Of a DNA stretch of 64,000 nt, positions 43,055 through 52,092 are shown in pieces (the stretch's first letter is position 1; every line of letters begins with the position of its first letter). Made by a program: the position numbers and the translations under genes. Source of the stretch: Ruania alkalisoli (GTDB taxonomy: Bacteria > Actinomycetota > Actinomycetes > Actinomycetales > Beutenbergiaceae); NCBI RefSeq assembly GCF_014960965.1, contig NZ_CP063169.1, positions 4,001,581 to 4,065,580 on the forward strand. The letters run 5' to 3'. The notes beneath the pieces are model-generated. The model was not told the DNA's origin. It was given only the letters and a program-made list of their open reading frames with translations, and made no database searches.

Positions 43055-43690
43055 TCAGACTCGGTGCCAATCCCTATCGCGCCGCCTCGCCGCGAAGGCG
43101 GCGATCTGGGTCCGCCGCTGGAGCCCCATCTTCGCCAGCACCGGAGTCACATGATTCTTGACGGTCTTCTCGGCAATCCCGAGCGCCTCTCCGATCTCCC
43201 GATTGGACAGCCCGTCGCCGATGAGGTCGACAATCCGCCACTCGTTGAGCGTCAATACAGGAGTCGCGTTTCCCCCAGCGATGCAAGCGAGTCCGAGCGA
43301 CTGTCGTAGCAAGGTCTTCCCTGCCGCCACCGACCGCGCGATGTCTACCAGCTCGGTGCAGCGCGCGCTCTTGAGCACAAAGGCGTGAGCGCCTGCCTCC
43401 CGAGCAGCTGATCGTGCCCCTCCGTCATCCGAACATGTCAGAACTACCGAGCGCACCAACGGCAGGCCGGAACGGACCTCACGCACCACCCCCAACCCGC
43501 CACCGCCTGGCAGCTCCAGATCCACCAGAAGCAGATCGGGGCGCATCAGCCCGGCACGGCGAGTCGCAGCATCCACTGTGCCCGCCTCGGCGACAACGGT
43601 GAGGTCTGCGGTGAGGCCGAGCACACCGGTGAGCCCACGCCGGAAGATCTCCTGTCCATCAGCAACAAGCACTCGCACCTGGTTCGCCAT
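43055..43690 (-). CDS. NarL/LuxR-type response regulator (orphan)
   Basis: A 211-residue two-domain regulator. The receiver has VADGQEIFRRGL and the phospho-acceptor Asp in LLLVDLELPGGG. The GerE/LuxR helix-turn-helix is LTLNEWRIVDLIGDGLSNRE followed by IGEALGIAEKTVKNHVTPVL. The ATG at 43690 is 19 bases after the stop of the GH65 gene, so it is probably the last gene of the glycerol/phosphorylase operon. No sensor kinase is near. Linker acidic residues of the receiver look partly changed (ADGQ instead of DD), so phosphorylation may not control it. Confidence 0.83.
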   Translation of the reverse strand: MANQVRVLVADGQEIFRRGLTGVLGLTADLTVVAEAGTVDAATRRAGLMRPDLLLVDLELPGGGGLGVVREVRSGLPLVRSVVLTCSDDGGARSAAREAGAHAFVLKSARCTELVDIARSVAAGKTLLRQSLGLACIAGGNATPVLTLNEWRIVDLIGDGLSNREIGEALGIAEKTVKNHVTPVLAKMGLQRRTQIAAFAARRRDRDWHRV

Positions 43691-43709
43691 GCTGCACCAG
43701 ATCGGATGC

Positions 43710-50516: not shown

Positions 50517-50574
50517 TCGTTCATCTCCTTCAGTAGTGGGTTGATCCCGAACCGGGACCAGGGGCTGCCGGTGT

Positions 50575-52092
50575 CTACTCGACGTCTACCCAGTCGAGCG
50601 TTCTCTGAATCGCCTTCCGCCAGTCCGCGTGCCCGGCGGCACGTCGCTCGTCGGACCACTGCGGCGTCCACCGCTTGGACTCGTGCCAGTTCTCACGCAG
50701 CTCATCCGTGCTTGACCAGAATCCGACGGCAAGGCCAGCGGCGTAGGCGGCACCGAGTGCCGTCGTCTCCGGAACACGTGGACGAATCACGGGCACGCCG
50801 AGGATGTCCGCCTGCATCTGCATGCACAACTCGTTGGCGGTCACCCCGCCGTCTACCTTGAGCGCCTCAAGGCCCGCGCCGGAGTCGGCCACCATCGCGT
50901 CTGCGACGTCGCGGCTCTGGTAGCAGATCGACTCGAGGGTGGCGCGGGCCATGTGCGAGTGATTGCTGTACCGCGAGAGCCCGACGATCGCGCCCCTGGC
51001 GTCACTGCGCCAGTGAGGTGCGAACAGTCCGGAGAAGGCGGGCACGAAGTAGACGCCACCGTTGTCCTCCGAGCGCCGTGCGAGACCTTCGATCTCACTG
51101 GCATCGGAGATCATGCGGAACTGGTCGCGAAGCCATTGCACGGCGGAGCCGGTGACCGCGATCGACCCCTCGAGCGCATACACGGGCGCTTCGTCTCCGA
51201 ACTGGTAGCAGACCGTGGTCAGCAGCCCGTTGGTGCTCCTGACGATCTCCGTACCGGTGTTCAGGAGGAGGAAGTTCCCAGTGCCGTAGGTGTTCTTCGT
51301 TTCACCTGGTGCGAAGCACACCTGCCCGACCATGGCCGCCTGCTGATCGCCGAGGCTACCTGTCAGCGGGATCCCTCGGAACTCGGTCGGCATCGTCGTC
51401 TCGCCGTATCGGGCCGGGTCCGAGGACGGACGGATCTCCGGCAGCATCGCACGCGGGATTCCGAAGAACCCGAGCAACTCGTCATCCCAGTCGAGGGTCT
51501 CGAGATTCATGAGCATCGTGCGGCTGGCGTTGGTGACATCGGTGAGGTGCTTTCCGCCGCCGTCAACCCCGCCCGTCAGGTTCCACATGAGCCAGCTGTC
51601 GGTGGTTCCGAACAGTGCATCGCCCTTCTCGGCGTCCTCCCGCGCACCGGGGACGTTCTCGAGGATCCACTGGATCTTGCCGGCAGAGAAGTAGGTAGCC
51701 GGAGGCAACCCGGCCTTGCGCCGGATCACGTCACCCCGCCCATCGCGTTCGAGCGCGCTCGCGATCTGGTCGGTGCGAGTGTCCTGCCAGACGATCGCGT
51801 TGTAGTAGGGCCTGCCGGTCTTGCGGTTCCAGACGACCGTCGTCTCGCGTTGGTTGGTGATGCCCATCGCCGCGACGTCCGAGGAGACGAGCCCGAGCCC
51901 GTTCATCGTCGCCTGGATAGCGGAGCGGGTCCGCTCCCAGATCTCGACAGGGCTGTGCTCGACCCATCCGGCCCTGGGCAAGATCTGCTCATGCTCCAGC
52001 TGGTGGCGACCGACCTCGTTTCCACCATGGTCGAAAAGCATGAAGCGGGTGCTGGTCGTTCCTTGATCAATCGCTCCGACGAAGTCCGCCAT
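50575..52092 (-). CDS. glpK: glycerol kinase, copy 1
   Basis: A 505-residue FGGY kinase making glycerol-3-phosphate. The N-terminal ATPase motif is GAIDQGTTSTRFMLFD; the active-site NQRETTVVWN, the YFSA Tyr and the catalytic Asp in SLGDQQAAM are intact. The ATG at 52092 follows GAGGAGAG by 7 bases; an open stretch to 52272 is leader. It is the first gene of the operon running through glpX, glpD and the GH65 cassette, divergent from iclR. A 17-base repeat element lies about 84 bases upstream. No glycerol facilitator gene is in the window. Confidence 0.94.
   Translation of the reverse strand: MADFVGAIDQGTTSTRFMLFDHGGNEVGRHQLEHEQILPRAGWVEHSPVEIWERTRSAIQATMNGLGLVSSDVAAMGITNQRETTVVWNRKTGRPYYNAIVWQDTRTDQIASALERDGRGDVIRRKAGLPPATYFSAGKIQWILENVPGAREDAEKGDALFGTTDSWLMWNLTGGVDGGGKHLTDVTNASRTMLMNLETLDWDDELLGFFGIPRAMLPEIRPSSDPARYGETTMPTEFRGIPLTGSLGDQQAAMVGQVCFAPGETKNTYGTGNFLLLNTGTEIVRSTNGLLTTVCYQFGDEAPVYALEGSIAVTGSAVQWLRDQFRMISDASEIEGLARRSEDNGGVYFVPAFSGLFAPHWRSDARGAIVGLSRYSNHSHMARATLESICYQSRDVADAMVADSGAGLEALKVDGGVTANELCMQMQADILGVPVIRPRVPETTALGAAYAAGLAVGFWSSTDELRENWHESKRWTPQWSDERRAAGHADWRKAIQRTLDWVDVE

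What the first reader, a model, noticed from the sequence alone, without database searches (positions are those of the whole stretch)
43055..52092. Glycerol operon fused with an alpha-glucoside phosphorolysis cassette: possible glucosylglycerol pathway
Seen: glpK, glpX, glpD, a beta-phosphoglucomutase-like HAD, an OtsB-like phosphatase and a GH65 phosphorylase follow each other with gaps of 1-60 bases, several overlapping. Known: GH65 enzymes release beta-glucose-1-phosphate, which beta-phosphoglucomutase converts; GH65 includes 2-O-glucosylglycerol phosphorylase; OtsB relatives can act on glucosylglycerol phosphate. Inferred: the operon splits glucosylglycerol into beta-glucose-1-phosphate and glycerol and uses both (GlpK, GlpD), with GlpX for gluconeogenesis. 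Trehalose is the main alternative. The HAD-OtsB-GH65 order equals the domain order that I recall in the single mycobacterial protein Rv2006, as if split.
Basis: partly seen in the sequence, partly recalled or inferred. Interest (0 to 1): 0.8.

Follow-up and report, generated by a model that had tools for sequence, protein, structure and literature searches.

The report
Glycerol-to-trehalose operon without sugar nucleotides
Six genes in one apparent operon look able to turn glycerol into the protective sugar trehalose without the usual UDP-glucose enzyme; the three trehalose genes recur together in many bacteria and may be an overlooked way of making trehalose, still untested at the bench.

Summary
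The gene run is real: glpK, glpX, glpD, a beta-phosphoglucomutase (bPGM)-like HAD, otsB and GH65, one strand, junctions from a 1-base overlap to a 61-base gap. The glucosylglycerol reading is not supported. At six published specificity positions the GH65 protein reads DQGQDE, the motif of an assayed trehalose-6-phosphate phosphorylase, and a tree sets it apart from maltose, kojibiose and glucosylglycerol phosphorylases. OtsB is a curated trehalose-phosphatase. OtsB lies beside GH65 in 61 of 80 related loci from many phyla. No OtsA-family match was found in 26 of 79 of those genomes, and no trehalose PTS in the 49 searched. There GH65 is the likeliest source of OtsB's substrate, so the cassette probably runs in synthesis: glucose 6-phosphate and beta-glucose 1-phosphate to trehalose 6-phosphate to trehalose. 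Here GlpK, GlpD and GlpX would feed it from glycerol. GH65 and GlpX were found in this genome and in none of 23 family relatives, and GlpD is a second copy, so the operon was probably acquired. Against: this genome and 53 of 79 others do have OtsA-family genes. Direction, substrate and co-transcription are inferred.

The parts
50575..52092 (-). glpK, glycerol kinase (505 aa)
   Evidence: TIGR01311 728 bits (cut-off 590), NF000756 775 bits (cut-off 498); ATG at 52092 behind a GAGGAGGAGAG ribosome-binding-like stretch
49479..50513 (-). glpX, class II fructose-1,6-bisphosphatase (344 aa); the only match to its Pfam family in the genome, and no match in 23 other genomes of the family
   Evidence: TIGR00330 319.5 bits (cut-off 259.3); PF03320 425 bits
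47759..49477 (-). glpD, FAD glycerol-3-phosphate dehydrogenase (572 aa); second copy in this genome
   Evidence: PF01266 + PF16901; NCBIfam best 324 bits, under its 360 cut-off; resident GlpD at G000:C1:532891-534588, 49% identical
46974..47759 (-). beta-phosphoglucomutase-like HAD (261 aa)
   Evidence: best solved match is a beta-phosphoglucomutase, 8h5s, E 3.9e-19; TIGR02009 129 bits, under its 153 cut-off; DVDG, SSSK and EDAVSG stretches seen in the sequence
46139..46957 (-). otsB, trehalose-6-phosphate phosphatase (272 aa)
   Evidence: TIGR00685 159.2 bits (cut-off 68.05); the 7 solved matches are named trehalose(-6)-phosphate phosphatase or a related protein; DYDG and GDDFTDE stretches
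43710..46121 (-). GH65 phosphorylase, predicted trehalose-6-phosphate phosphorylase (803 aa)
   Evidence: motif DQGQDE; tree; best solved match 9lb6 'Trehalose-6-phosphate hydrolase', 479 bits, against 310 (kojibiose phosphorylase 3wiq), 230 (4ktr), 162 (maltose phosphorylase 1h54)
43055..43687 (-). NarL/LuxR-type response regulator (210 aa), 22 bases behind the GH65 gene; role unknown
   Evidence: PF00072 + PF00196
52176..52192 (+). 17-base perfect repeat, copy 1, about 84 bases upstream of glpK; candidate operator
   Evidence: 2 matches in the window, 0.13 expected in shuffles; 30-base repeat at 80%
52544..52560 (+). 17-base perfect repeat, copy 2, upstream of the start that I think likely for the IclR gene
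52446..53393 (+). divergent IclR-family regulator (I think its true start is near 52590), overlapping a second glycerol kinase gene at 53342
   Evidence: PF01614, PF09339; no NCBIfam regulator model over its cut-off

Best explanation
An acquired operon that turns glycerol into trehalose without a sugar nucleotide. GlpK and GlpD take glycerol to dihydroxyacetone phosphate. With the cell's own triose-phosphate isomerase, aldolase and phosphoglucose isomerase (assumed, not searched), GlpX drives carbon up to fructose 6-phosphate and glucose 6-phosphate. The beta-phosphoglucomutase makes beta-glucose 1-phosphate from part of it. [quoted passage not shown] OtsB removes the phosphate, which pulls the chain forward. 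Shown here: gene identities, order, motif, tree position, co-occurrence, patchy OtsA, no trehalose PTS found. Inferred: substrate, direction, co-transcription, physiological role as solute or carbon store.
For: GH65 motif DQGQDE equals that of the assayed T6P phosphorylase CaGP (PMC8537180, results section). In the tree, window GH65, 60 relatives and 9lb6 are cut off from four GH65 proteins of other types (support 99). 28 positions kept by at least 95% of 80 relatives are shared by window and 9lb6 and not seen in those four (gaps and missing chain ends counted as not seen). OtsB beside GH65 in 61 of 80 loci, bPGM in 65, both in 57. OtsB motifs DxDG and GDDxTDE in 60 of 61; the other starts at a contig end. 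No GT20 (OtsA family) match in 26 of 79 genomes: 17 of 49, 9 of 30; in 23 of these 26 OtsB sits beside GH65. Trehalose PTS: no match in 49 of 49 cassette genomes, and one 22.6-bit fragment under the cut-off in the own genome. Neighbours that could supply hexose phosphate elsewhere: PEP synthase-type domains in 5 of 64 upstream neighbours; sugar transporter and ROK kinase in L003. A three-enzyme in vitro mix ending in T6PP gave T6P at 93% yield, and its authors call that step nearly irreversible (PMC13121652, passages and one section). GH65 and GlpX each found in this genome and in 0 of 23 other family genomes.
Against: The genome also has a canonical otsA-otsB pair and a second GH65 with the trehalose-phosphorylase pattern behind its own bPGM-like gene, so trehalose can be made without this operon. 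53 of 79 cassette genomes do have a GT20 match. 19 of 80 loci show no OtsB nearby, 3 of them in the OtsA-less genomes. The review that I looked at gives T6PP only as degradation (PMC12125463, passages). The glp link was seen in one genome. By their titles many of the 79 genomes are MAGs or drafts, so some absences of OtsA may be missing sequence. I found no assay of a GH65 from such a cassette.
Confidence: 0.58

Rival explanations
1. Catabolic T6P phosphorolysis as in Lactococcus: T6P is split to beta-glucose 1-phosphate and glucose 6-phosphate, bPGM recovers the former, and OtsB only trims excess T6P or balances the pool made by OtsA.
For: The Lactococcus enzyme is described as part of trehalose utilization (reference titles and passages). 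GH65 phosphorylase reactions are reversible. The own genome has OtsA to make T6P, and 53 of 79 cassette genomes have an OtsA-family match.
Against: No trehalose PTS over the cut-off in any of 50 genomes searched. 26 of 79 genomes have no OtsA-family match, leaving no T6P source that I know of. A T6P phosphatase in the same cassette would compete with T6P use. GlpX would not be needed for it.
Confidence: 0.2
2. Glucosylglycerol pathway by way of a phosphate: GH65 uses glycerol 3-phosphate (made by GlpK) as acceptor and OtsB dephosphorylates glucosylglycerol phosphate; or the first reader's direct glucosylglycerol phosphorolysis.
For: Genomic link to glpK and glpD here, and GlpD-like and GpsA-like genes next to or near OtsB-GH65 on two Rubrobacter plasmids. 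T6P phosphorylases take a phosphorylated acceptor.
Against: Same motif DQGQDE in 72 of 80 relatives, 0 of 80 with linked glp genes of this kind. Window GH65 departs from only 6 of 190 positions kept by 95% of relatives. OtsB meets the trehalose-phosphatase model. Motif and tree place are unlike the solved glucosylglycerol phosphorylase.
Confidence: 0.1
3. Trehalose phosphorylase plus OtsB: OtsB dephosphorylates T6P and GH65 splits trehalose, like the maltose-6-phosphate phosphatase route of Enterococcus (title of reference 13 of PMC8537180).
For: OtsB and a GH65 side by side.
Against: The assayed trehalose phosphorylase of PMC8537180 carries TRIGPP; the window GH65 has DQGQDE. The trehalose-phosphorylase pattern is on the other GH65 of the genome.
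Confidence: 0.05
4. The glp genes and the cassette merely lie next to each other and serve unrelated purposes.
For: Glp link seen in one genome only; the 29 best other GlpX loci of the class show no GlpK or GlpD within about 1.5 kb. Promoter and terminator scans found no more than chance.
Against: glpD and bPGM overlap by one base; all junctions are at most 61 bases. GlpX and GH65 are each missing from 23 of 23 family relatives, which fits one acquisition.
Confidence: 0.07

Closest known systems
Trehalose-6-phosphate phosphorylase (EC 2.4.1.216; GH65 subgroup 22 of PMC8537180): Lactococcus lactis TrePP, Caldithrix abyssi CaGP
   Same: GH65 domains; the motif DQGQDE published for CaGP; bPGM partner (for Lactococcus from the abstract start of PMC7608592 listed)
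   Different: Described role is degradation of T6P; here an OtsB phosphatase in the cassette, glycerol genes upstream, and no trehalose PTS found
OtsA-OtsB trehalose synthesis
   Same: OtsB dephosphorylates T6P as last step
   Different: T6P would come from glucose 6-phosphate plus beta-glucose 1-phosphate through GH65, not from UDP-glucose through OtsA
Mycobacterial OtsB1 (Rv2006), 1327 residues, function unknown (PMC11046441, passage)
   Same: HAD-OtsB-GH65 order in one chain, as in fusions found here (L146, L150, L160). That Rv2006 has these domains is recalled
   Different: The 14 fusion loci read S in place of D at the first motif position; literature reports no phosphatase activity for OtsB1; no glp genes matched in these loci
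2-O-alpha-glucosylglycerol phosphorylase (EC 2.4.1.332), Bacillus selenitireducens; I take 4ktr to be this enzyme (recalled; the PDB name is only GH65)
   Same: GH65 family
   Different: 28.6% identity, motif EIGPHP against DQGQDE
Streptomyces glycerol operon gylCABX with the IclR-type regulator GylR (recalled, from no call)
   Same: glycerol kinase and GlpD with an IclR-family regulator beside them
   Different: here with glpX, bPGM, otsB and GH65; the IclR was not shown to be GylR

Membership tests
Trehalose-6-phosphate phosphorylase (GH65) | GH65 N-terminal and catalytic domains | tested here: met
   PF03636 221 bits, PF03632 428 bits, both over cut-off
Trehalose-6-phosphate phosphorylase (GH65) | Residues DQGQDE at CsKP positions 64, 392, 394, 402, 416, 585 | tested here: met
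   Five read from a MAFFT alignment; 416 by counting back from His423, because MAFFT put W there in the gapped loop. The same counting gives the published letters for the kojibiose (W), maltose (E) and trehalose (P) types
Trehalose-6-phosphate phosphorylase (GH65) | Groups with a known T6P enzyme apart from other GH65 specificities | tested here: inconclusive
   Groups with 9lb6 at support 99, but 9lb6 is known to me only by its PDB name, long branches are flagged, and I fetched no assayed T6PP sequence
Trehalose-6-phosphate phosphorylase (GH65) | Catalytic activity with T6P and phosphate, or the reverse | not testable with these tools
   needs an assay
2-O-alpha-glucosylglycerol phosphorylase | Closest to the solved enzyme 4ktr and sharing its specificity residues | tested here: not met
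   230 bits against 479 for 9lb6 and 310 for 3wiq; motif EIGPHP against DQGQDE
Trehalose phosphorylase (EC 2.4.1.64) | TRIGPP motif | tested here: not met
   DQGQDE; the other GH65 of the genome reads TRI-PP
Trehalose-phosphatase OtsB | Curated equivalog TIGR00685 over cut-off and HAD motifs | tested here: met
   159.2 bits, cut-off 68.05; DYDG and GDDFTDE
Beta-phosphoglucomutase | NCBIfam model over cut-off | tested here: not met
   TIGR02009 129 of 153 bits, TIGR01990 93 of 189 bits; I therefore call it bPGM-like
Beta-phosphoglucomutase | Active-site stretches (Asp pair, S-x-S-K, ED; roles recalled) and nearest solved structure | tested here: met
OtsA-OtsB pathway | OtsA in the same operon | tested here: not met
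   the only GT20 match is at C1:934803-936185, far from the operon at C1:4.05 Mb, beside a second otsB

The most novel reading that the evidence does not exclude
bPGM-OtsB-T6P phosphorylase is a widespread natural pathway of trehalose synthesis that needs no sugar nucleotide, found in many phyla and on plasmids, plugged into whatever supplies hexose phosphate (glycerol here, perhaps glucose or pyruvate elsewhere), and fused into one chain in some genomes, which would give the unexplained mycobacterial OtsB1 a role.
Probability: 0.45. Interest if true: 0.8.

Novelty: new variant of a known kind. Interest (0 to 1): 0.6.

Why it matters
A 2025 review gives TPS/TPP and TreY/Z as routes to trehalose, TreT, TreP and TreS as reversible ones, and T6P phosphorylase only as a way to degrade T6P (PMC12125463, passages). 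A 2026 study calls its own in vitro mix, which ends in the same enzyme, new to nature and speaks of natural pathways as TPS-dependent (PMC13121652, passages and one section). If the cassette makes trehalose in cells, that is a further natural route, costing no UTP, and it makes the role of orphan OtsB-GH65 fusion proteins testable. The glycerol operon would be a ready-made module for making trehalose from glycerol.

Tried and rejected
Glucosylglycerol phosphorylase: rejected by motif, tree and relatives. Glucosylglycerol-phosphate synthase in the genome: the single GT20 gene scores 550 bits as OtsA (cut-off 565, just missed) against 360 for the synthase (cut-off 569). Rubrobacter plasmid cluster as the source of the window's glp genes: its FGGY kinase is nearer ribulokinase and xylulokinase than glycerol kinase (L177), and its GlpD is only 32-33% identical. 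Shared glpK-glpX-glpD order elsewhere: not seen in the 29 best other GlpX loci of the class. First reading of motif position 416 from MAFFT gave W and no match to the published motif; anchoring on His423 gave D. Promoter and terminator scans gave no more than chance. GC over the operon is 0.64-0.68 and 0.65-0.71 in the rest of 30-64 kb, so composition says little. Ten literature searches listed no paper whose title or abstract start describes this pathway; I read only passages or sections of five papers (PMC8537180, PMC13121652, PMC11046441, PMC12125463, PMC8950772). Structure prediction and viral-contig scans were not run.
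Full report
What is there. On the minus strand of the window lie glpK (50575-52092), glpX (49479-50513), glpD (47759-49477), a beta-phosphoglucomutase-like HAD (46974-47759), otsB (46139-46957) and a GH65 gene (43710-46121), followed after 22 bases by a response-regulator gene (43055-43687) (family matches). The window lies in a 4.45-Mb single-contig genome at C1:4001581-4065580. 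The junctions run from a one-base overlap to 61 bases, which fits one operon; transcription was not tested.

Which phosphorylase. De Beul and colleagues (PMC8537180; abstract, introduction, results, discussion, tables and part of the reference list read) sort GH65 by six positions. Four enzymes predicted by motif were assayed: TRIGPP trehalose phosphorylase, FAITQA oligoglucan phosphorylase, EEAPWS kojibiose phosphorylase, DQGQDE trehalose-6-phosphate phosphorylase (CaGP). The window enzyme reads DQGQDE, as do 72 of 80 relatives and the solved chain 9lb6. Position 416 lies in a gapped loop; MAFFT first gave W there. Counting seven residues back from the histidine at 423 gives D, and the same rule returns the published letters for the kojibiose, maltose and trehalose types. 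The other GH65 of the genome reads TRI-PP, the trehalose-phosphorylase pattern with a gap at 402. In a 66-row tree (a chosen subset of 131 rows, count) the window, 60 relatives and 9lb6 are split from maltose phosphorylase 1h54, kojibiose phosphorylase 3wiq, 4ktr and the own second GH65 with support 99, with a warning for long branches. Window and 9lb6 share 28 positions that 95% of 80 relatives keep and those four do not show (gaps and missing ends counted as not shown), five of them arginines; that these hold the 6-phosphate is a guess. 9lb6 is named Trehalose-6-phosphate hydrolase in the PDB; what its depositors measured is unknown to me.

The cassette elsewhere. Within 5 kb on the same strand OtsB lies beside GH65 in 61 of 80, bPGM in 65, both in 57, and none has a match to the window's GlpK, GlpX or GlpD. 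The usual order is bPGM, OtsB, GH65. Hosts by record title include Halomonadaceae, Pseudomonas, Thioalkalivibrio, Desulfobulbus, Planctomycetaceae, Pontibacter, Rubrobacter and Binatia; that many live in salt or soda is my reading of the names. OtsB motifs DxDG and GDDxTDE are found in 60 of 61 (L030 starts at a contig end); a third, looser motif is missing in 8 of 61. bPGM motifs are complete in 62 of 65. In the class, 69 of 394 genomes drawn have a GH65 match at E 1e-130 or better. Of 44 class and order loci read, 14 have OtsB beside GH65, and in all 14 the OtsB match lies in the same open frame as GH65, frames of 1231-1457 residues; in four of them (L146, L149, L150, L160) a bPGM match is in that frame too, in L149 a short one. 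Two of the 14 frames lack OtsB motifs in my search (L143 both, L154 the first). A named case is the Rhodococcus plasmid pDK1, where one annotated otsB gene covers the GH65 match. GH65 relatives at E 1e-60 or better are in 59 of 72,556 plasmid records, a few of them of chromosome size.

Direction. The cassette genomes were searched for GT20, the family of OtsA. No match at E 0.001 was found in 17 of 49 (one of 50 handles was not held) and 9 of 30, so 26 of 79. In 23 of these 26 OtsB sits beside GH65; L050, L055 and L076 are the exceptions. They include Pseudomonas profundi, Halomonas jincaotanensis, Desulfobulbus alkaliphilus, Marinobacter vulgaris and a Binatia record titled as a chromosome; many others are MAGs, so some absences may be gaps. 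A trehalose PTS was matched in none of 49 cassette genomes, and in the own genome only by a 22.6-bit fragment under the cut-off; among the control genomes the search rang in 5 of 14, over the cut-off in 2. A T6P phosphatase then has no visible substrate source but GH65 run in synthesis. In print, a three-enzyme mix ending in T6PP gives T6P at 93% yield and the step is called nearly irreversible; the Keq of 760 refers in the design section to the overall maltose reaction and in the discussion to the last step (PMC13121652). Against this, 53 of 79 genomes do have a GT20 match, and so does the window's own genome.

Feeding modules. Of 64 upstream neighbour proteins scanned, 5 carry PEP synthase or PPDK domains (L027, L050, L071, L079, L081); of 39 downstream, 6 match PfkB and 1 Glucokinase. 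These neighbours came from my own rough gene picker; 111 same-strand picks of at least 130 residues were listed and 103 sent; the 8 left out are two from L003, three from L004, one each from L006, L011 and L055. L003, an uncultured Rubrobacteraceae, reads sugar transporter, bPGM, ROK kinase, OtsB, GH65, glucose-6-phosphate dehydrogenase; Rubrobacter marinus (L004) has the same transporter, dehydrogenase and an unscanned gene of equal length in the place of the kinase. The ROK kinase is nearest a glucokinase family but under its cut-off. Two Rubrobacter plasmids place OtsB-GH65 next to or near GlpD-like and GpsA-like genes. In the window glycerol genes stand in that place, and GlpX, the fructose-bisphosphatase, is what glycerol needs to reach glucose 6-phosphate.

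Origin of the operon. GH65 (E at most 1e-100) was found in 1 of 24 genomes of the family, the own one; GlpX (E at most 1e-40) likewise in 1 of 24, although 308 of 394 genomes of the class have one at E 1e-90, at most 62% identical among those listed. GlpD is a second copy; the genome itself and 7 of 7 congeners have a resident GlpD 48-50% identical. So three of the six genes look foreign to the family's usual stock, which fits acquisition as a block; the GlpD test covered the genus only. GlpK, OtsB and bPGM were not tested in this way.

Regulation. A 17-base perfect repeat stands about 84 bases before glpK and again before the probable start of the divergent IclR gene (2 in the window, 0.13 expected). 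That it is the operator of this regulator, and that glycerol or glycerol 3-phosphate is the signal, is inference by analogy with Streptomyces GylR, which I recall.

Verdict. Observation confirmed; glucosylglycerol not supported; most likely a glycerol-fed trehalose synthesis operon built on a cassette found in many phyla. I found no description of the route in the held library, judged from listings and the passages named; the library lacks most subscription journals.

Noticed in passing
L177 1299-9382 (Rubrobacter indicoceani plasmid) and L178 1-10328 (R. radiotolerans plasmid 2): OtsB-GH65 downstream of FGGY kinase, GpsA-like and GlpD-like genes (in L177 also an annotated glycerol-1-phosphate dehydrogenase); in L178 two minus-strand genes lie between, and a PPK2 polyphosphate kinase follows GH65.
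   Followed up: partly
L050, L081, L079, L071, L027, upstream of the cassette: PEP synthase or PPDK-like genes beside the T6PP cassette in five genomes, suggesting a link to gluconeogenesis.
   Followed up: partly
L153, L163, L164, L169, L170, L171: Genomes of the same order carry bPGM plus GH65 without a nearby OtsB and with motif HQGPDE (6 loci from 5 genomes); the acceptor may differ.
   Followed up: no
L181 4153-12962 (Nitrobacter hamburgensis plasmid 2): Annotated in a row: glucokinase, a gene that covers both bPGM and GH65 matches, a HAD-IIB hydrolase, a glycosidase and a phosphoketolase.
   Followed up: no
window 52446-57912, + strand: IclR regulator, second glycerol kinase (50% identical to the operon's), a sodium:solute symporter and an amidohydrolase, divergent from the operon.
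   Followed up: no
L002 1-4062 (G000 C1 near 569 kb): A trehalose-phosphorylase-like GH65 gene overlaps the end of a bPGM-like gene; the next gene on the same strand looks like dihydroxyacetone kinase (named from memory, not scanned).
   Followed up: partly
window 43055-43687, - strand: A NarL-type response regulator gene 22 bases behind GH65; no partner kinase was looked for.
   Followed up: no
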